Below, in pieces: positions 38,100 to 49,339 of a DNA stretch of 64,000 nt (positions are counted from its first letter, which is position 1; each line of letters opens with the position of its first letter). The stretch is taken from contig CAMVMX010000013.1 of NCBI GenBank assembly GCA_947168665.1, positions 46,141-110,140 on the forward strand, written 5' to 3'. The DNA is from an uncultured Bacteroidales bacterium (GTDB lineage: Bacteria; Bacteroidota; Bacteroidia; Bacteroidales; P3). The translations under genes were made by a program, and so were the position numbers. The notes beneath the pieces are model-generated. The model saw only the letters and a program-made list of their open reading frames with translations, ran no database searches and was not told where the DNA came from.

Positions 38100-38972
38100 A
38101 TGACCATTGTAAATCAGTTAAAATTATATATTCCCAAGTTTCTCACACAGAAAAAGACCAACATCCTTTTCTTTGTCTTGGTACTCCTTTTCTCGGCCTT
38201 TTTTGTGGCCGTTTATCAGCCCCTCGGGCTCTTGAATCCCCCCCCACTCCTCACTTCCCTCCACCATCGCCTCTATTCCATCATCCTTGTCCTCATCGGC
38301 CTTGCAGTGTTCAGTATCAGTCGGCGGGTACTCTTTTTAGTGCAGCAACGTGTCTCGATCAGTCTCGGGGGCTATTTCCTATGGGTAGGGGTTGAGTTCA
38401 TCATGCTTGTCGCCTCGCTTTCGTTCATTGCCTGGAATCTCAACGAAGACTCCAGCGTCACATACCCCCTGATTGCAGAGCGCACAGCCATTAGTATCAT
38501 AGGCCTCCTCGCCATGCCTTACATCGTGTCCGTCCTCGTTTTCCTTCTGCAGCAAAAGCGGTTGGAGATAGCTTCGCTTACCAGCCAGCTTGACCAGACC
38601 ACAGTCGGAACCCCCGTTGTGGGGCGCGAGGATGTCCTCCAGTTCTACGACAAAGGGGGCAAACTCGTGCTGGCCACCAAATGCAGCAATGTCCTCTACA
38701 TCGAGGCGGCCGACAACTACACCGTCATCCACTTCCTCAGCAGTGAGAAAGAAGATACCTTGGTACTCCACAACTCCCTCAAAAACATTGCGGAGACCTT
38801 TTCCTCTCAAGGTATGGTGCGTTGCCACAGGGGTTACCTGGTCAACCTTGCCAACGTAAAGTACATGCGCAAAGAGAAAGACGGCCTCGTTCTCGAGATT
38901 GCCCATTGCGACAGGCTCATCCCCGTGTCCAAGACCTATGCCCACGATGTGGTCCAGCAGTTCGCCAATTAG
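38100..38972 (+). CDS. membrane-anchored LytTR-type transcription regulator (second copy)
   Basis: 290 residues. Four hydrophobic segments (about 20-150), then a LytTR domain (about 180-290: LQFYDKGGKLVLATKCSNVLYIEAADNY in parts, MVRCHRGYLVNLANVKYM, LIPVSKTYAHDVV). Same build as the 18459-19304 product. Divergent from the fabH-led lipid cluster with 199 bases between, so control of that cluster is possible. Confidence 0.88.
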   Translation: MTIVNQLKLYIPKFLTQKKTNILFFVLVLLFSAFFVAVYQPLGLLNPPPLLTSLHHRLYSIILVLIGLAVFSISRRVLFLVQQRVSISLGGYFLWVGVEFIMLVASLSFIAWNLNEDSSVTYPLIAERTAISIIGLLAMPYIVSVLVFLLQQKRLEIASLTSQLDQTTVGTPVVGREDVLQFYDKGGKLVLATKCSNVLYIEAADNYTVIHFLSSEKEDTLVLHNSLKNIAETFSSQGMVRCHRGYLVNLANVKYMRKEKDGLVLEIAHCDRLIPVSKTYAHDVVQQFAN

Positions 38973-39469: not shown

Positions 39470-41056
39470 CTAAATCAGCCGTGCGACGCTGATTTTCTTC
39501 CATTTCTTACCCATGCCCAACAGGTAAGCGTCCTGGTTCTTTATCAGCAGTTCGCCTTTGCCGAGGGCTGCAATATCCTGCCGCAAGTTCTGCATCTCGC
39601 GTTGGCTGAGTCCGTAAAGGTCTCGCAGCACACTGTCGTTGATTGTCTGCTGCTTCATTATCAACGGGTATTGGGCGTTGGTGTAGAAGTCGAAATACTT
39701 GCTTCTGTAGCTGTCCATACTCTGGGTGGCCAGTATGATACTCATCCCCTTGTTGCGTCCCACGGCTATCAAGTTGCGCAGCGGTCTGTTGTCGAACCCT
39801 AACATATAGTGGGCCTCGTCAATAATGGTAAAGTGGCGCAGCTCCACACATTCTTCGCTCGTGGCCTGTGGCGGCAGCTGTTCATATATCGAGTTCAATT
39901 TAGAAATCATGAAGTACACGATAGCCTTGGCCAGCACCCCCTCCTTCGGGTAGCTGTCCAGTTTCACGATAAAGCTGTTGTCCACCAGCGATGTGCTGTC
40001 CTGCTCGGCAAAGATATTTCCCCTCACCATCTGGCTCAGCACCGAGCTGATACTGTCCATAATCTCAGCGTCTTTCTGCCTTGCTTGGTAGCAGTTCAGC
40101 AGCCGCTGTAGTGAAAAGGGGCGGTACCCCGTCTGTTGGTATGCGTCCATGATGGCTTCGCTCAGCCGATTCGACATATTGGCGCTTATCTTTGTGTTGT
40201 CCAGTGCTGTGAGGGCCGATGCCAGTTCTGTGGAATACAGATTCACCTCGTTGATACTGCTGTGCGAGAAGTCCCTGAACGGGGTGAATGGCAGGGGATG
40301 CTGCATCGGGTCGAGGATTGCAGTCTCGTCCACCTCCAGATAATTCAGCCACGCCCTGTTCTTCGGGTCCGAAAACTCTCCCTTATAGTCGAACAACAGG
40401 AAGTTCACCGGGTAGTTTGTGTCCACCGTTTCCTGTCTCAGTCGGCTGGCCAGCAATGCCAGCAGGTTTGTCTTTCCGCTGCCGGTTGTGCCGGCAATGA
40501 GGATTTGCGTGTTGTTCACATCGCGTCCGTTCAGGTCCAGCGTGGCATCCATATCTCCCTCATAGGTGCCTATGCTGATGTTCAGTCTTGGTATCTTGTA
40601 GGTCTTTTTGCGGGTGCCATACTGTGCCATCAGGCATTCTTCCAAATGGTTTTCTTCCATCAGCCAGTCACGTCCGAGCAAAATCTCGTATGCCACAATC
40701 CGCGACAGTGTTGCCTGCTCCTCCCAGTTCACGTTGCATTTGGCATACCGCAGTTTCAGCAAGGGGGCGTATATCTTCCCCAGGTCATTCTTCGTGAAAA
40801 AACTCGGCACTATCCGCTGGCTGCTTTTCGACAGTGCTACGGCCTCCACAGCCTTCATGTCGCGCGGTGTGCGCAGGCTCAGCCCTGTCAAGAAACATAT
40901 CCGCATCACCATATTGTTGTTCAGCTGAATACGTTTCCGTCCTCCTGCCTGTTTCAAGTTCAGGCGTTGCTCTATAGTCGTCTTCAGTTCCAGCAGACTG
41001 TCTACAATGTTTTCTGCCTGCCGCAGATTCGAAAATTCTATGTTCATAGCCGTCAT
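39470..41056 (-). CDS. HerA-type ATPase with DndE-like N-terminus
   Basis: 528 residues, last gene of the five-gene operon. C-terminal two thirds are a HerA/FtsK-like ATPase (DUF87 type): Walker A AGTTGSGKTNLLALLASRL (about 186-196), LLFDYKGEFSD, Walker B FTIIDEAHYML, and ATQSMDSY. The N-terminal ~110 residues (FSNLRQAEN, MVMRICFLTGLSLRTP, LLKLRYAKCNVNWEEQATLSRIV) resemble DndE, the DNA-nick-binding protein of phosphorothioation systems; this link is weaker than the ATPase call. HerA proteins pump DNA and often work with a nuclease. ATG 41056 leaves 2 bases to the upstream stop; 41047 is an alternative. Confidence 0.85.
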   Translation of the reverse strand: MTAMNIEFSNLRQAENIVDSLLELKTTIEQRLNLKQAGGRKRIQLNNNMVMRICFLTGLSLRTPRDMKAVEAVALSKSSQRIVPSFFTKNDLGKIYAPLLKLRYAKCNVNWEEQATLSRIVAYEILLGRDWLMEENHLEECLMAQYGTRKKTYKIPRLNISIGTYEGDMDATLDLNGRDVNNTQILIAGTTGSGKTNLLALLASRLRQETVDTNYPVNFLLFDYKGEFSDPKNRAWLNYLEVDETAILDPMQHPLPFTPFRDFSHSSINEVNLYSTELASALTALDNTKISANMSNRLSEAIMDAYQQTGYRPFSLQRLLNCYQARQKDAEIMDSISSVLSQMVRGNIFAEQDSTSLVDNSFIVKLDSYPKEGVLAKAIVYFMISKLNSIYEQLPPQATSEECVELRHFTIIDEAHYMLGFDNRPLRNLIAVGRNKGMSIILATQSMDSYRSKYFDFYTNAQYPLIMKQQTINDSVLRDLYGLSQREMQNLRQDIAALGKGELLIKNQDAYLLGMGKKWKKISVARLI

Positions 41057-41058
41057 TG

Positions 41059-43068
41059 TCAATCGTTTATAGTGTTTAGTGGTACACCGAAATAACCCTC
41101 CTCCACTGTTGTCTGTTGCTCCTCCACATTGCGTACCAGTGTATACGACTTCGCCACAAAGGGCTCCAGCCTCACATAGTCGCGGTCCTTCCGTATTTCC
41201 GATGTCGTGCACAGCAATATCGTCTGGCTCGCCAGCCGGGGGAAATACTCTTCCATCAGTGCGTCGCGGCTCGCCTCGTCCAGCACTCCCATCACCGTGT
41301 CTATCATCACTGGCGGGTTGTAGTCGCCCAGGTTGCGCAGCACTTTCAGCAGCACCTGGATGAATATCTGCTTCGAGGCGGCGTTCAGGTTTGTCAGGCT
41401 TATCTCATTTCCGTGTGTGTGGTACAGGCGTATGGCAAAATGCTCCAGCGTGTCGCTCAGTTCCACCCTTGCAATGCAATCCTTGTAAGCCAGCAGCAGC
41501 TTGTTCAACTGTTGCTTCATTTCTGTTTCAATCTGCGACTTCTTCCGTTTCAGCAGTGCGCTGCTGATTTCTGCAAACAGGGGCTTCAGCTTTGCCAGGG
41601 TGTCGTACCGTGGGTCGGGTTCTTGCTGTATCTGAACGTCAAATTTGTGAATCTTGTTGTCAATGCCCCTTATCTTCCCTTCCAGCTCCCGGGCCTCGTC
41701 CTTCAGCTGGTCCAGCCGCTTCTTTTGGCTCTCATAGTCGTTGATCAGCTCCTCGCTTCCCTGTTGCAGCGATGCCTCCAAGGCCGCTTTCTGCAGGTTC
41801 AGGTTCTCTATGTCGTCCAGCTGGTCGTCGATGTCCTGCCTCATGCGGTCCAATGCCGGGAAGTTGTTGAACGCACCCATCTTCATCAAGCCGTCCAGAC
41901 TTTCCACATCGTTGTCGTCCAGATAGCTGTAGGGGTCATTGCGCTGCATCGACTGCTGCTCCGCCACCAGGTGTTCCACCATGTTCTGCTCGTCGACATT
42001 GGGCACACACAGAGCCAGGCTTTTCATATACTCCAGCAGCCTGTGGGCGATGTCGCGCAGCGTCTCCACCGTATAGCTGCCATCCTGTTCCTTTTTCAGA
42101 CTTTCGCGCAGATGCACTATCTGCTCTATCTCGTCCTTCATCGAGTATGCCAAGTGCGACACAAACACATTCTGCTCTATCTCGTCCACAAAGGCCTTCA
42201 GCTCCTCGCCGTATCGCTCTGCCCGCTCGCCTATGGTCTTTATCTGTGCCGTCACCGTGTCCAGCTTCACCCGTTGGGCCCGAGCCTCTTCGGCGCCGTT
42301 CTTGGCGGCGGTATACAGCTCTTGTATGTCAGCCAGATACTTGTATATCCCGTCTTGGTCGGTGGTGTTCTGCTCCAGCTGTTTTTGCAAGTCCTTCTTC
42401 TCCTCACACAGGCGGTCGTATGCCGCGGCCTCCTGTTGCGCCTCTAATCGCCGTTGCGCCCACTGCTGCTGCACCCGCTCGGCATTCGCGCTCAGCTGCA
42501 CGAATTTCTTAAACCCCATCACATTCTCTATGTTGTCCTGTATGATTTGGGCAAACACATTCTTCTTCATCAGCTCGCTCGTCTGCATTGCGTCGAATAG
42601 GAAATACTTGCTCAACTCCTCGGGCAGATTGGCGCGGATAATCTTGTTCACCTGCTGCTCTCCCTCGGCGCGGTCGCGTGCCGACGATGCGCTGCCGTAT
42701 GAGAAGACTGTCCCATCCATGTTCAGCATCACGCTCTCCACGGGCTTCCCGCTGTCGTTGAGGATATAGGTCCGCCGCATCACATACTCCTTTGTGGCTG
42801 ATAGTATCTGGCCCGAGAAAGCCAGCTCCAGCTCTATCTTCGGGGCCTCATGTCCCCGTGCCCCGTCGTTCAGCAGCTCGGTGAACTGCTCGCGGTTGCG
42901 TATCTTCAGCCCATACAGCGCTCCGCACACTGCTTCAAACAGGGTGGTCTTTCCCCCGCCGTTCTGACCTCCTATCAGCACGATACTCCGCTCGTCGCTC
43001 ACCCTCAGGTCCAGGTCCAGCGACAGGTAAGTCTTGTAGTTCCTTATTTTTACTCGTTCTATTATCAT
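41059..43068 (-). CDS. DndD-like SMC/ABC ATPase
   Basis: 669 residues. N-terminal Walker A IGGQNGGGKTTLFEAV (about 33-48), the DndD-type segment YFLFDAMQTSELMKK (about 152-166), then long coiled-coil arms (about 195-530) with an LEGKIRGIDNKIHKFD-type hinge, and a C-terminal half with NEISLTNLNAASKQIF in the signature position and VMIDTVMGVLDEASRDAL as Walker B and D-loop. DndD normally has LSxGE, so the signature is degenerate. The DndD family supplies ATPase for phosphorothioation; here it sits beside a methyltransferase and Res. 3 bases from the small gene. Confidence 0.85.
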   Translation of the reverse strand: MIIERVKIRNYKTYLSLDLDLRVSDERSIVLIGGQNGGGKTTLFEAVCGALYGLKIRNREQFTELLNDGARGHEAPKIELELAFSGQILSATKEYVMRRTYILNDSGKPVESVMLNMDGTVFSYGSASSARDRAEGEQQVNKIIRANLPEELSKYFLFDAMQTSELMKKNVFAQIIQDNIENVMGFKKFVQLSANAERVQQQWAQRRLEAQQEAAAYDRLCEEKKDLQKQLEQNTTDQDGIYKYLADIQELYTAAKNGAEEARAQRVKLDTVTAQIKTIGERAERYGEELKAFVDEIEQNVFVSHLAYSMKDEIEQIVHLRESLKKEQDGSYTVETLRDIAHRLLEYMKSLALCVPNVDEQNMVEHLVAEQQSMQRNDPYSYLDDNDVESLDGLMKMGAFNNFPALDRMRQDIDDQLDDIENLNLQKAALEASLQQGSEELINDYESQKKRLDQLKDEARELEGKIRGIDNKIHKFDVQIQQEPDPRYDTLAKLKPLFAEISSALLKRKKSQIETEMKQQLNKLLLAYKDCIARVELSDTLEHFAIRLYHTHGNEISLTNLNAASKQIFIQVLLKVLRNLGDYNPPVMIDTVMGVLDEASRDALMEEYFPRLASQTILLCTTSEIRKDRDYVRLEPFVAKSYTLVRNVEEQQTTVEEGYFGVPLNTIND

Positions 43069-43071
43069 GGC

Positions 43072-43293
43072 TCATTTCTGTTTTATCTTCATCACTGCCG
43101 CCTCGATGATGTTGCCTGTATCCTCGTCGTTGGTATCCATGCTCTCGGCTCTGAGGGTGTGGTAGGGGCGCAACACCTCCTCCTTCAGCCAGTCGAAGTC
43201 CACCTCGTGCCGTTGGCATATTTGCTCGATGGTGTCCAGGTCCTCCCGGCGGATGCCGTAATGTACAAACGATATGTCTATTCCTTTCTTCAT
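43072..43293 (-). CDS. 73-residue protein in the restriction-like operon
   Basis: MKKGIDISFVHYGIRREDLD... 73 residues, acidic and probably helical, with a lysine tail. No domain known to me by sequence; similar small proteins are said to accompany DNA-modification operons. The tight spacing (3 bases) to the DndD-like gene and the gap of 64 bases to the Res-like gene place it in the operon. It may be an adaptor, regulator or anti-nuclease. Confidence 0.75.
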   Translation of the reverse strand: MKKGIDISFVHYGIRREDLDTIEQICQRHEVDFDWLKEEVLRPYHTLRAESMDTNDEDTGNIIEAAVMKIKQK

Positions 43294-43357
43294 GAGTGTT
43301 TTTTTATTAGGTTTCTAGTCTTTCTAGTTTCTATAGCTTTTCTATATACTCCCCCTC

Positions 43358-45676
43358 TTACCCCTCGTCTGGGAAGAAGGCTTTCCACCTCCTGTGGTCG
43401 GTGGTGTTCTCTATATAGGTGTCGCAGTAGAGCCAGTTGCCCGAGGGAGAATCTTCCACTATCACGCCGCCGCCCATGCCCTCATGCTCCCGCACATAGT
43501 CTATCAAGGCGTTGTGCTTGGCCGGTGCCTCCCCGTCGCTGTCCGCGCTCTTGGTGTCGAACAGCATCAGGCGGCCGTTCTTCAGCTGTATGATAAAGTC
43601 CACATAGAAGAGTCCGCGGCTTTTGCCGTCCGTCTTGGTATAGGCTATGGCGTAGTGGTCGCGCCCTTTGTCGCCGTTTTTGTACCACCAGTCTATCTGT
43701 TCCCTGTGTTCTTCAAGGAAAGTCTCAAACCGCTGTTCGGGTGTCGAGGCTCGTTTCAGTCGGATGAAAGGCTCCAGGGCGTGGTTCTCCACGTCAGGCA
43801 CTGCCTCATTGGTCTCTTCGTCATACAGTCTGTCCTTTGGCAGCTCCCATCGTGTGTCCACTATCGCGCGTTCCGCCGCCTGCTTGCGGCGCTCGTCCAC
43901 CTGCCTTTCGTAGGTGGCTATCGCCTTGCGCACAATCTCGGCATACTTTCGGTTGTTATCCTGCTTGGTGCTCAGGATAACCTTCCGTGCCTCGGTCTCG
44001 AAACATTCAAACAGTTCCTCCATCAGCTCCAACAGGCATCGGCTCAGTGTGGCCGCCGACAGTTTCTCGAAGGGGGCGATATTCCGCTCGCAGAAGTCGG
44101 CAAACAGTCTTCGCAGCTCGCCTCCCTTCCGGGCAAAGCCATAGCGTTGCCCGTCTTTCAGCACCGTCTCGCCCTCCAAGTTCAGGTCCACATCCTCCGG
44201 TATCCACACCTGCACCTTCTGCACGTCGAAGGTGACGTGTGCCCGCAGTTCCGCGCTGCGGCGGTTCACGGCGCAGGGGTTCTCAGGCCCGGTGGGGAAT
44301 GGGTCGTCGTCAAACTCCAAGTGGGTTTGCGAAAGCCCCCAGTTGTCCACAAACGTCTGCCGCAAGGTCTTCTTGAAGTCGCTGCCCAGACGCATACGGC
44401 TCTCGCCCCGGCGTATGCTCGTGCTGCTGTCGAGGGTGATGGGGGTCACATCCTCCCGCCGTTTGGCCACCAGTCGGCTGATGTAGCCTATCCCGTCCGC
44501 CACTATCTCTATCTTGTCCGCGCTCAGGTCGGTATACACATAGCCCTTGTTCAGCAGCGCGTCGGGGTAGAAATGCTGCTCCGGCATGCGCAGTATGCGG
44601 CCCACGGTCTGCATGGTGAACGTCATGCTGTTCATTTTGCGGAATATCAGCAGCACCGCAGCCCGGGGGCAGTCCCATCCCTTGGCAATGGCCTGTTTGA
44701 ACAGCAGGGTCTGCACCATGCTGTCCGGCTTCTCTATGCCGTCTAAATTCTGCTTGTCCTTGCTGTCGCTCAGCCATACCGCTAAGCGGCCGTTGGCGGT
44801 GGTCATGTTCCAGTTCGTCATTTCCAAATACTTCTCCACCGTGTCGCGTATGCGGGTGTCGTCGTCGTTCAGGGCGGCCTTGTCGTTGGGCAGCTGTATC
44901 AGCAGCAGCGGATTGATGTTCGCGCCCTGCCGCTGGTAGGCCTCGGCTATCTCCTGTCGGCGGCGCAGGGCCAGTTCCAGCAGGTGCTGCGTCAGGTCAC
45001 GCTCGTCGCTGATGTCCTTGCTCACGTTGGGGTTCAGCACAATGCCCTCCTTGATCATCTCCTCGGCAATCACCCGCTCGCGCGGTATGCTCACCTGCTG
45101 CTCGCCCCGTGTGAGGGGTGTCGCGCTCACGCGCAGCTCTATCTTGGGGTCTATTCGGTCTAACACCTTGCGGCTCTTGTCCGCCCGCTTGTCCCAGAAG
45201 TCGTGTTCCTCGTCAATCACCACGATGATGGGGTGTCCCGCCTCGCGGGTGCGGCGGGCGGTCTCGAATATGGAGCAGCCCTGCTCCGTGTCGCGCACCA
45301 TCAGGTTCTTCTCCTTGTTGATGCTCTCCCAGTTGGCGAAGAGCACCTCTCCCGGGTGCAGCAGGCCCTCGTTGCGGTCCACCTCGTCGTACATCACGGG
45401 GCGCAGCTCGCGCGTCTCGCCGAAGTAGTTCTTCATCTTGAAGTAGCTCTGCTCGTGCAGGGCGTTGGGGGCAATCCATATCATCACCGGCTCCTGCTCC
45501 CGTCCGCGCGTCTGCAGGGCCACCTGCTCCAGTGCCATAGTGGTCATCACTGTCTTGCCGCTGCCCGTAGGGGCCTCGAACACCAAGGTGTGTCTCGTGC
45601 CGCCCAACTCTAACATGTCTAATGTGTGCTGCACAATCTGGCTCACCGCCCGCTGTTGATAGTCAAGTGTCTTCAT
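43358..45676 (-). CDS. type III restriction Res-like helicase-nuclease
   Basis: 772 residues. SF2 helicase: Walker A FEAPTGSGKTVM (about 31-42), DEEH box IDEEHDFW, SATP, and the second RecA domain with AIAKGWDCPRA and QTVGRILRMPE. The C-terminal domain is nuclease-like: RGLFYVDFIIQLKNGRLMLFDTKS fits a PD-(D/E)xK core (Asp ... DxK). In type III systems the Res subunit moves on DNA and cuts it when Mod recognises an unmethylated site. Its ATG overlaps the Mod stop as ATGA (45673-45676). Complete. Confidence 0.92.
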   Translation of the reverse strand: MKTLDYQQRAVSQIVQHTLDMLELGGTRHTLVFEAPTGSGKTVMTTMALEQVALQTRGREQEPVMIWIAPNALHEQSYFKMKNYFGETRELRPVMYDEVDRNEGLLHPGEVLFANWESINKEKNLMVRDTEQGCSIFETARRTREAGHPIIVVIDEEHDFWDKRADKSRKVLDRIDPKIELRVSATPLTRGEQQVSIPRERVIAEEMIKEGIVLNPNVSKDISDERDLTQHLLELALRRRQEIAEAYQRQGANINPLLLIQLPNDKAALNDDDTRIRDTVEKYLEMTNWNMTTANGRLAVWLSDSKDKQNLDGIEKPDSMVQTLLFKQAIAKGWDCPRAAVLLIFRKMNSMTFTMQTVGRILRMPEQHFYPDALLNKGYVYTDLSADKIEIVADGIGYISRLVAKRREDVTPITLDSSTSIRRGESRMRLGSDFKKTLRQTFVDNWGLSQTHLEFDDDPFPTGPENPCAVNRRSAELRAHVTFDVQKVQVWIPEDVDLNLEGETVLKDGQRYGFARKGGELRRLFADFCERNIAPFEKLSAATLSRCLLELMEELFECFETEARKVILSTKQDNNRKYAEIVRKAIATYERQVDERRKQAAERAIVDTRWELPKDRLYDEETNEAVPDVENHALEPFIRLKRASTPEQRFETFLEEHREQIDWWYKNGDKGRDHYAIAYTKTDGKSRGLFYVDFIIQLKNGRLMLFDTKSADSDGEAPAKHNALIDYVREHEGMGGGVIVEDSPSGNWLYCDTYIENTTDHRRWKAFFPDEG

Positions 45677-47757
45677 TGGTTGTCCTCCTTTCTTTCGTTG
45701 ATGTCGCTGCCGTCAATAATCTCGTTGTCGTAGTAGCGGTCCTCCTGCGGCAGCACACGGCGGTAGGCCTCGTAGATGGCAGCGGGCAGTGCGCACAGCT
45801 GCACACGATCCTCCACCTCGGCAAAGTCGTCGTCGTAGGCATAGTTGGTGTAGGAGAAGGTATAGACTTTGATGGGGTTAGAGCATACCCCGGCCTTCGG
45901 CCACCCCTCTTTTGAACATACCCCGGCCTTCGGCCACCCCTCTGAAGAGGGGATGGCTGGCGCGGCGGTAGTCGCATTAGCGGGTGCGGGAGGTGTAGTG
46001 GTAGTCGCATCAATGGGGACGGGTGGTGTGGTGGTTGTCGCATCAATGGGGATGGGTGGTGCGGCAGCATCCCCTCCTTGGGAGGGGTTAGGGGTGGGTA
46101 TAGAGTGGTTGTGAGTATCCTTTGCGGCCAACTTCGCCCTATCGTCCACTCGGTTTGGTTTTGAGCATACCCCAGCCTTCGGCCACCCCTCTGAAGAGGG
46201 GAGGGGTGGTGTGGTTTTGAGCCACTCAACGATACGGGGGATGGCCTCTTCGCTATAGATGACCATCATCAGGCGGTCACCCTTGCCAAACAGGCGCACA
46301 TGCTTTCGGATGTTGCGGATTTCTAAATTCTGGATTCTCAGTTCCTCGAAGATATCCTCCTTGATGCAGAGCAGGTCGGTGGCGGCGGCCATGAGGTCGC
46401 GCATATTGCGGTTGGTGCGCTGGCGTGGCAGCAGCCGAGTGCGGTAGTATCGCAGACTGTTGTCCCTCAGCCCCTCCACCTCCACGCCTTTGGGCGTGGT
46501 GTAGCCCTCTATCACGCGCTTGTTGCGCTCGTAGGTCACCTCCTCGCAGATGTTGTTCTCGTTGTTCGTCACCAAAATGCACTGCCGATGTCCCCCGTCC
46601 TCCTTGTTCAATTGCATCACCGCATGCATCGTCGTCCCACTCCCCGCAAAGAAGTCAGATATAATGGAGTCGGCTGTGGTTGTATGATATAGTATTTTCT
46701 TTATTAAAGAAGAAGGCTTCACAGTATCAAATCCAGTCTCTTTCCCCATAATGGTATTAAGTTCGTTTTTGCCATTCTGTGCCGTCCCGATGGAAGAGTC
46801 CATATGAGACCAAAATGGGTCGTACGATAGTTTTTTTTCCTCATCATTAGGGTAAACGGCTTTTTTTACAATACCATTATCTATTTCAATTCGCCCTCTT
46901 TTTATTAAGTCTTGCGCTGTGTCAAATCCAATTTGCCATCGCTTGCCTTTACGAGGGTATTGTCCGAGTATTGGGAATTTCATAGACTCCCTATTGTAAA
47001 AACCAGCATCTGATTTTTCAATTATCTCCAGTCGACATGCACCATATCTACCATTATTTGGGTAATTCCTTTTTTTATCCTGTATTTCTAATCGAAAACC
47101 ATTTATTATCTCTTTCCTTTTTGCGTAGAATAATATTGATTCAACTTTCTGTTGTAGACCATATTTGGCATTTCCTGCATTTGTGGGTTGAGTTGTGGAT
47201 TCCCAAGTGATATGACCAATGAAGTTTTTCTCAGTAAAAATTTCGTCGCATAATATTTTCAGTTGAGCAAATTCAATGGTATTAATTGAGATTAAAATAG
47301 TCCCTCGGTCGGAGAGCAGACGTTTGGCGATGCGGAGGCGTTTGGACATGAAGGAGAGCCATTTGCTGTGGCGGTAGTCGTCGTCGGCATCGACGTAGTG
47401 GTCATTATAGGAGAAGTCTTTATTGCCGGTGTTGTAGGGCGGGTCGATATAGATGACGTCGATGCGGCCCTCGTGGGTGTAGGTGAGGGCGGTGAGGGCT
47501 TCGAGGTTGTCGCCCTCGATAAGGATGTGGTTGGGGGAGGAGGGGGAGGAGCCGGGGATGTAGCGTTCCGGCACTTCGTCGAGTACGGGCAGGTGGGTGC
47601 GGAGGCGTTCTTCCACCTCCTCGGGGTGGTTCTCCCACACAAGGCCGTATTTCTTGGTGTTGACGAGTTCGAGCAGGGCAGCCCGCTCGTCGTCGCTCAG
47701 CCCCGCCAACGTTTTGATACGCTGCCGCAGGGCCTCACGATTGATTTTCGTTGCCAT
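45673..47757 (-). CDS. type III Mod-like DNA methyltransferase with repeat insertion
   Basis: 694 residues, beta-class N6-adenine methyltransferase. N-terminal type III Mod region (LVWENHPEEVEERLRTHLPVLDEVPERYI in parts), catalytic DPPYNTGNKDF (about 135) before the SAM motif FFAGSGTT (about 362), giving the beta order. Residues ~190-350 are the target-recognition region and are AT-rich in DNA. Residues ~515-625 are unlike any Mod: three SSEGWPKAGVCSK-like stretches from DNA palindromes and three 11-residue PIDATTTTPPV repeats, lying between IVEWLK and KVYTFSYTNYAYDDDF, which normally nearly adjoin. First gene of the operon. Start at ATG 47757 (MATKINREA). Confidence 0.92.
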   Translation of the reverse strand: MATKINREALRQRIKTLAGLSDDERAALLELVNTKKYGLVWENHPEEVEERLRTHLPVLDEVPERYIPGSSPSSPNHILIEGDNLEALTALTYTHEGRIDVIYIDPPYNTGNKDFSYNDHYVDADDDYRHSKWLSFMSKRLRIAKRLLSDRGTILISINTIEFAQLKILCDEIFTEKNFIGHITWESTTQPTNAGNAKYGLQQKVESILFYAKRKEIINGFRLEIQDKKRNYPNNGRYGACRLEIIEKSDAGFYNRESMKFPILGQYPRKGKRWQIGFDTAQDLIKRGRIEIDNGIVKKAVYPNDEEKKLSYDPFWSHMDSSIGTAQNGKNELNTIMGKETGFDTVKPSSLIKKILYHTTTADSIISDFFAGSGTTMHAVMQLNKEDGGHRQCILVTNNENNICEEVTYERNKRVIEGYTTPKGVEVEGLRDNSLRYYRTRLLPRQRTNRNMRDLMAAATDLLCIKEDIFEELRIQNLEIRNIRKHVRLFGKGDRLMMVIYSEEAIPRIVEWLKTTPPLPSSEGWPKAGVCSKPNRVDDRAKLAAKDTHNHSIPTPNPSQGGDAAAPPIPIDATTTTPPVPIDATTTTPPAPANATTAAPAIPSSEGWPKAGVCSKEGWPKAGVCSNPIKVYTFSYTNYAYDDDFAEVEDRVQLCALPAAIYEAYRRVLPQEDRYYDNEIIDGSDINERKEDNQ
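45884..45952. repeat. two copies of a palindromic repeat inside the mod gene
   Basis: CATACCCCGGCCTTCGGCCA... starts at 45884 and again at 45917. The second copy continues into CCCCTCTGAAGAGGGG (45937-45952), itself a palindrome, and GGCCTTCGGCC is a second one. A third copy is at 46166. Confidence 0.85.
45968..46066. repeat. three tandem 33-bp repeats inside the mod gene
   Basis: Units at 45968-46000, 46001-46033 and 46034-46066, each beginning GTNGTCGCAT. Being 33 bp, they add or remove 11 residues without a frameshift. Confidence 0.85.
46071..46087. repeat. short palindrome inside the mod gene
   Basis: CCCCTCCTTGGGAGGGG: 7-bp arms and a 3-base loop, followed by TTAGGGGTGGG. It is of the same kind as the neighbouring palindromes. 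Confidence 0.7.
46166..46201. repeat. third copy of the palindromic repeat in the mod gene
   Basis: CATACCCCAGCCTTCGGCCA..., differing from the copy at 45917 by one base over 36. Confidence 0.85.
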
Positions 47758-48310: not shown

Positions 48311-49339
48311 CTATTGGTTGGCGTATTGCTGCACTTCGTCGTGGAAGAATTCGATGGCGACGCCGGCTTGGCGGAAGAGTTCTTCGCTTTCGGCCCCGGC
48401 GTGGTATTTGCGCTCGCAGACTACGCGCTTGATGCCGCAGTTGATGATGAGCATGGCGCAGGTGCGGCAGGGGGTCATGCGGCAGTAGAGGGTGGCGCCG
48501 TCGAGGGCGATGCCGCGGCGGGCGGCCTGGCAGATGGCGTTCTGCTCGGCATGGACGGTGCGGACGCAGTGGGTGGTGACGCGGCCGTCGGCCTCAATGG
48601 TCTGGCGGAAGAGGTGTCCGACCTCGTCGCAGTGGGGCAGGCCGGAGGGGGAGCCGACGTAGCCGGTGACGAGCAGCTGGCGGTCTTTGACGATGACGCA
48701 GCCGGAGCGCCCGCGGTCGCAGGTGGCACGCTTGGAGGCAGTGTTGGCCAGTTCCATGAAGTATTCGTCCCACGAGGGGCGGCGGTACATGATTTTGCCC
48801 AGCACTTCCTCGACTTGGCGGCCCAGGTCGTCGACGGTGCCGTTGTTGTCGAAACGGAAGTCGGCGTGGTCGATGCAGTAGCGGAGGTTTTGTTTGTTGG
48901 GGTCGTCGCTGGTCATTTCGCGCTGCTCGTTGGCGAGGAAGGTCTGGTAGTCGATGTGGTCGGTCTCGCTGCCGCGGAGGACGGCGCGCTCGTAGCGCAC
49001 GCGGGTGTCGGCGTCGACGGCAAAGAGGTAGAAGTTGGGCTTGGCGCGGAGGGCGTCGACTTCGCCGGGGGTGCGGATGCTTTCGATGATGCAGTTGCGG
49101 CCGGAGGCTTGGGCGCGGTCGTAGAGCTGCTCGACAATCCACGAGGGGGAATGGGCGGCGCGGAGGTCGTTGCCCACGAGGGTCATGCTGTCGCGGTTGA
49201 CTTCGAGTCCGCGGCGTTTGATTTCGTCGATGAGGAAGGCGCGGACGGAGTAGTGGTCGAAGTCTTTCTGACGCTGGAGGTATTCGACGATGGTGCCTTT
49301 GCCGGCCCCGAGGGTGCCTGTGATGCCGATGGTAATCAT
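48311..49339 (-). CDS. P-loop kinase - dCMP deaminase fusion
   Basis: 342 residues, two parts. Residues ~1-165 are a P-loop nucleotide-kinase-like domain (ITIGITGTLGAGKGTIVEYL with Walker A GTLGAGKGT). Residues ~185-342 are a zinc dCMP deaminase: TVHAEQNAICQAARRG (catalytic His/Glu) and MTPCRTCAMLIINCGIKRVV (two Cys). dCMP deaminase makes dUMP for thymidylate. Fusions of this kind are known from yeast Dcd1, and a P-loop plus deaminase layout is also found in the AvcD antiphage protein, which is longer. Housekeeping nucleotide metabolism is more likely, but it lies next to the restriction-like operon. Followed upstream by tandem repeats. Confidence 0.88.
   Translation of the reverse strand: MITIGITGTLGAGKGTIVEYLQRQKDFDHYSVRAFLIDEIKRRGLEVNRDSMTLVGNDLRAAHSPSWIVEQLYDRAQASGRNCIIESIRTPGEVDALRAKPNFYLFAVDADTRVRYERAVLRGSETDHIDYQTFLANEQREMTSDDPNKQNLRYCIDHADFRFDNNGTVDDLGRQVEEVLGKIMYRRPSWDEYFMELANTASKRATCDRGRSGCVIVKDRQLLVTGYVGSPSGLPHCDEVGHLFRQTIEADGRVTTHCVRTVHAEQNAICQAARRGIALDGATLYCRMTPCRTCAMLIINCGIKRVVCERKYHAGAESEELFRQAGVAIEFFHDEVQQYANQ

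What the first reader, a model, noticed from the sequence alone, without database searches (positions are those of the whole stretch)
39470..47757. Hybrid operon: type III-like Mod and Res joined to DndD-like and DndE/HerA-like proteins, without dndA/B/C
One tight minus-strand operon (ATGA overlap mod-res, 3- and 2-base gaps further down) combines a methyltransferase and helicase-nuclease with a DndD-like SMC ATPase and a HerA ATPase. DndD/DndE normally serve phosphorothioation, yet no cysteine desulfurase, DndB or DndC-like gene lies in the window. The system may use N6-methylation as the self mark and a DNA-pumping or SMC complex as effector or specificity aid. It may be related to known defence families, and novelty cannot be claimed from sequence alone.
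Basis: partly seen in the sequence, partly recalled or inferred. Interest (0 to 1): 0.87.

Follow-up and report, generated by a model that had tools for sequence, protein, structure and literature searches.

The report
Type III restriction with Dnd/HerA module
A five-gene bacterial operon, found in the same order in many Bacteroidota genomes, joins a methyltransferase–nuclease gene pair to relatives of DNA-handling proteins from sulfur-modification (Dnd/Pbe) systems, with no dndB or dndC found in its genome; it likely works as an anti-invader restriction system in which methylation would mark self DNA and the extra module would feed unmarked DNA to the nuclease.

Summary
The operon is real: mod (47757-45673), res (45676-43358), a 73-aa small protein (43293-43072), dndD-like (43068-41059), DndE-HerA fusion (41056-39470). 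Of 57 relatives with at least 6.5 kb upstream of the HerA gene, 56 carry all five genes in this order on one strand; in the exception a transposase gene sits beside a dndD remnant. No DndC or DndB is found in the genome; DndC exceeds its cut-off in 1 of 30 other genomes with the operon, on another contig. Res-SP-DndD-DndE/HerA has the component order of pbeABCD, but Res carries a conserved PD-(D/E)XK-like site, DndE is fused to HerA, and a type III Mod stands in for sulfur modification. Mod's target-recognition region varies freely while the other parts co-vary, so Mod, not DndE, probably sets specificity. Eight of eight divergent Mod-Res relatives with enough downstream DNA lack the module. 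Inside the clade the module is optional: four complete Mod-Res pairs lack it, two of them in genomes that hold a full set elsewhere. Best reading: a type III-like R-M system that acquired a Pbe/Dnd-type, probably DNA-translocating, module. New variant of a known kind; the DndD-like + DndE/HerA pair was already published as part of Dnd PT systems.

The parts
45673..47757 (-). mod: type III-like DNA methyltransferase, 694 aa, DPPY (105-108) and FAGSG (370-374)
   Evidence: (solved Mod 6k0w 2.4e-47, EcoP15I Mod 4zcf 1.4e-36)
46723..47226 (-). mod target-recognition region (residues about 178-345), hypervariable between relatives
45877..46214 (-). GC-rich repeat-bearing in-frame insert in mod, in a stretch (about residues 520-620) where the alignment of 54 Mods is mostly gaps
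43358..45676 (-). res: SF2 helicase-nuclease, 772 aa (Walker A, DExH, QxxGRIxR)
43541..43609 (-). PD-(D/E)XK-like nuclease motif of res (D693 ... D707-x-K709)
   Evidence: motif read by eye; fold not predicted
43072..43293 (-). SP: 73-aa Sp-DndD family protein, predicted four helices, motif YGIRxxDLxxI
41059..43068 (-). dndD-like ABC ATPase with coiled coil, 669 aa; altered ABC signature, commonest form LN[AT]ASKQ
39470..41056 (-). DndE-HerA fusion, 528 aa
40652..41044 (-). DndE domain (residues 5-135)
39473..40561 (-). HerA/FtsK ATPase domain (residues 166-528), like DndH C-domain

Best explanation
This is a conserved five-gene operon in which a type III-like Mod-Res pair is followed by a small Sp-DndD-family protein, a DndD-like ABC ATPase and a protein with predicted DndE and HerA domains, with no DndB or DndC found in the genome; it likely acts as a restriction-modification system in which Mod would methylate (probably N6-adenine) and choose the target sequence, and the DndD-DndE/HerA complex is predicted to grip and reel DNA so that unmarked DNA reaches the Res nuclease. 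Shown by sequence: gene content, order and conservation, catalytic motifs, free variation of Mod's target-recognition region, and no hit for DndB or DndC. Shown on a predicted model: DndE and HerA folds. Inferred: defence role, type of methylation, complex formation, DNA translocation. In evolution, an existing solo Mod-Res pair likely gained the SP-DndD-DndE/HerA module once, at the base of this clade, Res taking the place that the helicase-nuclease PbeA holds in pbeABCD; the module was later lost in some lineages, so Mod-Res alone is probably a working restriction pair and the module an enhancer or range-extender, not an essential part.
For: Five-gene order in 56 of 57 loci with at least 6.5 kb upstream (best 80 loci returned of 184 relatives). 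Catalytic residues of Mod and Res kept in at least 97% of 54 and 65 sequences, window included. DndE and DndH-C folds on the model. DndC absent at home and over its cut-off in 1 of 30 other genomes with the operon, on a different contig; DndB absent at home. Distances over 48 loci and the window (SP 45 rows): Mod target-recognition region against every other part r 0.04-0.24; Mod core, Res, SP, DndD, DndE and HerA domains among themselves 0.59-0.90. Four comparisons of two Mods in one genome: target-recognition region 14-22% identical, N-terminal core 66-89%. Of 10 divergent Mod-Res pairs fetched, the 8 with at least 1.8 kb after Res show no SP, DndD or HerA; module-linked Res form one clade, support 0.92. 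Component order equals that of a Pbe-like set in L171: PbeA, 71-aa protein, PbeC, 159-aa protein in the PbeD position.
Against: No experiment. Inside the Res clade four complete Mod-Res pairs lack the module (L116, L161, L167, L168); for L167 and L168 no HerA was found in the genome either (one genome only 56% complete), so the module is not needed for the pair to persist. Two genomes hold an orphan DndE-HerA without the rest (L121, L122). The DndD-like ABC signature is altered (commonest LN[AT]ASKQ, against SKGEQ in the DndD-type ATPase beside dndC in L162), so ATP hydrolysis is unsure. The target-recognition alignment is noisy (mean path length 3.3), which by itself lowers its correlations, and shared host ancestry was not controlled for. 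The HerA part of the model has low-confidence stretches (mean pLDDT 66.9).
Confidence: 0.6

Rival explanations
1. A Pbe-like defence system in which Res-SP-DndD-DndE/HerA is the restriction machine that stalls invader replication without cutting, with Mod as a replaceable marking enzyme.
For: Same component order as pbeABCD; SP shares the motif Y-x-I-R-x-x-D-L with the 71-aa protein in the PbeB position of L171 (weak: SP profile E 0.028); the window's ATPase also hits PbeC models (1.2e-54). PMC6459918 (passages read) reports no cleavage of viral DNA by PbeABCD, that deletion of any of the four pbe genes impaired protection, and base-modifying genes near 155 of 320 solitary pbeAC.
Against: Res keeps a D...D-x-K nuclease site in at least 97% of 65 sequences, a motif that PMC6459918 says PbeA lacks, and scores far better as type III Res (6.2e-19) than PbeA (7e-07). 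Res-clade relatives persist without SP-DndD-HerA.
Confidence: 0.2
2. Two independent neighbours: an ordinary type III R-M pair plus a separate DndD-SP-DndE/HerA anti-plasmid or anti-phage module that travels with it.
For: Solo Mod-Res pairs and orphan DndE-HerA both exist; a divergent DndD + DndE/HerA sits with an HsdR_N-type nuclease gene in L118.
Against: 56 of 57 loci keep both halves in order; Res and Mod core co-vary with DndD, DndE and HerA at r 0.61-0.76, though shared host ancestry was not controlled for; median Res-SP gap is 5 bases over 70 loci (64 in the window).
Confidence: 0.2
3. A degenerate sulfur-modification (Dnd) system that uses distant DndA/DndC.
For: The ATPase, SP and DndE domain belong to Dnd-type families; [quoted passage not shown]
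Against: No DndC or DndB in the genome; DndC over cut-off in 1 of 30 genomes with the operon (a second genome gave 28.5 bits, far below the cut-off), and in that one DndC sits on another contig beside its own DndD-type ATPase and DndE.
Confidence: 0.03

Closest known systems
PbeABCD / CxC-ABC ATPase system (PMC6459918, PMC10853773)
   Same: Component order helicase-nuclease, small protein, coiled-coil ABC ATPase, then PbeD (a DndE cognate according to PMC10853773); order compared with the Pbe-like set in L171, where PbeA and PbeC match PADLOC models and the 71- and 159-aa proteins are assigned by position only
   Different: Res with PD-(D/E)XK-like site instead of PbeA's PLD/HKD domain; DndD-like ATPase without CxC (2 of 72 have CxC or CxxC in the coil); DndE fused to HerA; type III Mod instead of PT or cytosine methylases; SP is well conserved (57% mean column identity), not rapidly evolving
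HerA/FtsK clade-3 proteins fused to DndE beside a DndD-related ATPase (PMC10853773, section 22)
   Same: Same fusion and same neighbour
   Different: Described there as part of Dnd PT-modification systems; here tied to Mod-Res in 56 of 57 loci, with no DndC at home and in 29 of 30 other genomes none over the cut-off. Whether Krishnan 2020 (gkaa726) drew the Mod-Res link could not be checked (not held)
Type III restriction-modification (Mod-Res)
   Same: Mod and Res families, ATGA-coupled genes, variable target-recognition region between DPPY and FxGxG
   Different: Three extra conserved genes
DndABCDE phosphorothioation
   Same: DndD- and DndE-type proteins
   Different: No DndB or DndC found; ATPase 23% identical to the DndD-type ATPase beside dndC in L162
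DndFGH
   Same: HerA domain closest to DndH C-domain (7es4)
   Different: Only the C-terminal part of DndH is present in this protein; DndF and DndG were not searched for in the genome

Membership tests
Type III R-M | Mod: DPPY and FxGxG methyltransferase with target-recognition region between them | tested here: met
Type III R-M | Res: SF2 helicase plus PD-(D/E)XK nuclease | tested here: met
   (nuclease by conserved motif; its fold was not predicted)
Type III R-M | Two-gene system that works alone | tested here: not met
   three further genes in 56 of 57 loci; but four in-clade pairs lack them
Type III R-M | ATP-dependent cleavage between two head-to-head unmethylated sites | not testable with these tools
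   biochemistry needed; feature recalled
PbeABCD | Order helicase-nuclease, small protein, ABC ATPase, DndE cognate | tested here: met
   compared with L171; there the small and the last protein are assigned by position only (no PADLOC hit for the last; no Pfam hit for either)
PbeABCD | PbeA with PLD/HKD nuclease domain | tested here: not met
   no PLD family for Res in Pfam at 0.1; D...D-x-K site instead
PbeABCD | Partner phosphorothioation genes | tested here: not met
   PMC6459918 notes solitary pbeAC too
Dnd PT modification | DndC sulfurtransferase | tested here: not met
   1 of 30 other genomes over the cut-off, unlinked
Dnd PT modification | DndD equivalog score | tested here: not met
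   TIGR03185 190.2 bits, cut-off 245.85
Dnd PT modification | DndE fold | tested here: met
   on a predicted model
DndE-HerA fusion beside DndD-like ATPase (clade-3 of PMC10853773) | Fusion and adjacency | tested here: met
DndE-HerA fusion beside DndD-like ATPase (clade-3 of PMC10853773) | HerA domain falls in clade-3 of that tree | not tested
   their sequences were not fetched
DndFGH | Full-length DndH | tested here: not met
   the best PADLOC DndH match covers only positions 1333-1702 of 1715

The most novel reading that the evidence does not exclude
SP-DndD-DndE/HerA is a sequence-blind DNA engine shared in trans by several Mod-Res pairs of one cell, each with its own target sequence: a plug-in that turns a short-range type III restriction pair into a system that captures and reels in whole invading molecules.
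Probability: 0.2. Interest if true: 0.78.

Novelty: new variant of a known kind. Interest (0 to 1): 0.58.

Why it matters
It would show that the DndD-DndE core is a portable chassis that works with base methylation as well as with sulfur, and that HerA pumps and ABC/SMC-like ATPases can be grafted onto a classic two-gene restriction system. The natural experiments listed here (tandem Mods, genomes with one module and two Mod-Res pairs, in-clade pairs without the module) make the open question of what DndD and DndE do directly testable apart from sulfur chemistry.

Tried and rejected
Dnd phosphorothioation: rejected. DndE as the sequence reader that sets modification sites (proposed for Dnd systems in PMC10853773): not supported here, because the DndE domain tracks DndD (r 0.90) and not Mod's target-recognition region (0.08). 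Absolute linkage of Res to the module: first suggested by 56 of 57 seen from the HerA side, then rejected from the Res side: of 8 in-clade Res loci of the sampled genomes with enough DNA, 4 carry the module or its start (G000, G415 contig 2, G433, G1000), 3 lack it (G415 contig 13, G968, G814) and 1 holds only a fragment of SP (G1023); G565 and G410 end at contig edges and have no HerA hit. G1000 shows the start of dndD at a contig end but no HerA hit in the genome, so assembly gaps do hide the gene. Of the 10 divergent Mod-Res pairs, L115 (contig ends at Res) and L130 (365 bases after Res) say nothing about the module. Small-protein fold: predicted four helices (mean pLDDT 79.8); Foldseek's best hit had E 3.6, which shows nothing either way. 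Carriage on plasmids or phages: no match in 72,556 plasmid records at E 1e-10 and none confirmed in viral contigs. In the fold search the DndE rows came with low-confidence stretches trimmed; plain Foldseek ranked DndE 44th, E 0.17; the Pfam DndE profile missed all 16 proteins. The DndC and DndB searches had no control genome over the cut-off; one search gave one for DndC. One search held no positive control; the same profile rang. The ATPase beside dndC in L162, used as the canonical DndD, scores best with a PADLOC model labelled PbeC (3.6e-122) and next with DndD (2.5e-81).

Papers: PMC10853773, abstract and sections 14, 16, 17, 22 and 24 in full plus passages; PMC6459918, PMC12839542, PMC12707154 and PMC5608340, passages only; all others, search listings only. 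The statement that the five-gene combination was not found in print rests on searches; Krishnan et al. 2020 could not be read.
Full report

Conservation. A scan of one genome for each of 84,980 species found 184 relatives of the DndE-HerA protein; the best 80 were returned. By record title nearly all are from Bacteroidota; single records are titled Opitutales, Alphaproteobacteria and Clostridium, and one 'uncultured bacterium'. All 80 have at least part of the DndD-like gene; 73 have SP, 70 Res, 63 Mod. The 17 without Mod are 16 loci with under 5 kb upstream of HerA, and L028. Of the 57 with at least 6.5 kb upstream, 56 hold all five genes, whole or in part, on one strand; all 63 five-gene loci have the same order. 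In the exception, L028, only the end of dndD is left, behind a DDE transposase gene, with relaxase and NikA-like mobilisation genes further upstream. In sampled genomes the DndE-HerA protein is rare: 3 of 395 in the phylum, the window's genome included (the other two, G275 and G283, show none of the other four genes nearby), and 8 of 393 in the order (one, G776, very divergent; one, G745, with broken frames; three on short contigs). It was not seen on plasmids or viral contigs.

Active sites. Over 54 Mods the motifs DPPY and F-A-G-S-G are kept; over 65 Res, Walker A, DExH, QxxGRIxR and D693...D707-x-K709 are kept, each at 97% or more. Over 72 DndD-like proteins Walker A and Walker B (MIDT) are kept, but the ABC signature reads most often LN[AT]ASKQ, while the DndD-type ATPase encoded beside dndC in L162 reads MSKGEQQ. 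What this does to ATP hydrolysis is unknown.

No sulfur chemistry seen. DndC and DndB profiles find nothing in the whole genome. In 30 other genomes with the operon (30 of the 80 loci were submitted, picked by hand, mostly long contigs), DndC exceeds its cut-off in one, G805, on contig 1, whereas the operon's Res lies on contig 12; a second genome gave 28.5 bits, far below the cut-off. In G805 dndC is followed by its own DndD-type ATPase and a DndE (Pfam 1.7e-23) and, on the other strand, by a Pbe-like set.

Who sets specificity. Distance matrices from trees of 48 loci and the window (45 rows for SP) show that the target-recognition region of Mod (residues 178-345) is uncoupled from all else (r 0.04-0.24), whereas Mod core, Res, SP, DndD, the DndE domain and the HerA domain correlate at 0.59-0.90; strongly supported splits shared with the target-recognition tree number 0 or 1 in each of the five comparisons made, which left SP out. 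Tandem mod genes in L056 (both open) and L031 (the second split in two frames), and second Mods in two genomes with a complete operon, differ in this region (14-22% identity) but much less in the N-terminal core (66-89% identity). The likely meaning is that Mod alone picks the sequence and the DndD-DndE/HerA machine is blind to it. Limits: the region is hard to align and host ancestry was not controlled for.

Origin. Ten divergent Mod-Res pairs were fetched (L108, L110, L111, L113, L114, L115, L127-L130); eight have at least 1.8 kb after Res and show no SP, DndD or HerA, and two (L115, L130) end too soon to tell. Module-linked Res form one clade (support 0.92) that also holds four complete pairs without the module. 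Two of these, L116 and L161, sit in genomes that hold a full operon elsewhere; L161 was found in a genome chosen for the operon, L116 in a sampled genome that turned out to have one, so the coincidence is only suggestive. The other two, L167 and L168, are sisters, and no HerA was found in their genomes. So the module was likely gained once and lost several times, and is an add-on.

Comparison. In L171 a Pbe-like set reads PbeA, 71-aa protein, PbeC, 159-aa protein; PbeA and PbeC match PADLOC models, the two others are assigned by position and match nothing in Pfam. Res-SP-DndD-DndE/HerA has the same order, and the small proteins share Y-x-I-R-x-x-D-L (profile E 0.028, weak). Xiong 2019 (PMC6459918, passages) suggested that solitary pbeAC might pair with methylation; Rakesh 2024 (PMC10853773, sections) reports cytosine methylases with the CxC core and, separately, DndE-HerA fusions beside a DndD-related ATPase in what they call PT systems. 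The present operon joins these lines: type III Mod, PD-(D/E)XK-like Res, DndD-like ATPase, DndE-HerA. Searches listed no paper in the library whose listing or passages, as far as I read them, describe it; Krishnan 2020, which may, could not be read.

Mechanism, committed. Mod would methylate one strand of an asymmetric site. Unmarked DNA would be bound by Mod-Res. The DndD-SP-DndE/HerA complex would hold the DNA and move it through a HerA ring, raising the chance that Res meets the configuration it needs to cut on long or fast-replicating invaders. Every step of this paragraph up to here is inference. Genes inserted inside the operon of some relatives (RhuM in L007, L014, L044; Abi_2 in L018, L047; Schlafen AlbA_2 in L009; YhcG nuclease in L019, ten ORFs tested, one without a family) fit a defence setting; that such genes gather around restriction systems is recalled.

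Noticed in passing
window 45877-46214: mod of the window carries an in-frame repeat-rich insert of roughly 110 codons (33-base units and three copies of a CCGGCCTTCGGCCACCCCTC-type block) where the alignment of relatives is mostly gaps; the block core occurs only at these three places in the genome.
   Followed up: partly
window 48311-49339: Gene upstream of mod on the same strand encodes a P-loop domain plus a dCMP-type deaminase and matches PADLOC dCTPase (4.5e-42, part of the model): a possible second defence gene, or a housekeeping enzyme.
   Followed up: partly
L118 7571-12663: A divergent DndD-like ATPase and DndE-HerA fusion sit with genes for an HsdR_N-type nuclease and an unassigned 183-aa protein: the same chassis with other partners.
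   Followed up: partly
L121 9767-11497; L122 5718-7469: Orphan DndE-HerA proteins (51-56% identical to L045's) without DndD, SP, Res or Mod in 16-18 kb.
   Followed up: partly
L031 1791-5390; L056 1628-5461: Tandem mod genes with different target-recognition regions upstream of one res; in L031 the second copy is split in two frames.
   Followed up: yes
L028 1415-10003: The operon is cut inside dndD: a DDE transposase gene lies next to the remnant, and relaxase and NikA-like mobilisation genes lie further upstream.
   Followed up: yes
L162 and L171 (genome of L057): dndC, a DndD-type ATPase gene and dndE next to an oppositely oriented Pbe-like set, on a different contig from the five-gene operon: three related ATPase systems in one genome.
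   Followed up: partly
L012 1892-5286: mod of Phocaeicola coprophilus has a long insert after its methyltransferase core, at about the place of the window's insert, reading as a 1033-aa ORF plus an overlapping 666-aa ORF without Pfam match.
   Followed up: no
window 38100-38972: LytTR-type regulator on the plus strand beyond the end of the operon.
   Followed up: no
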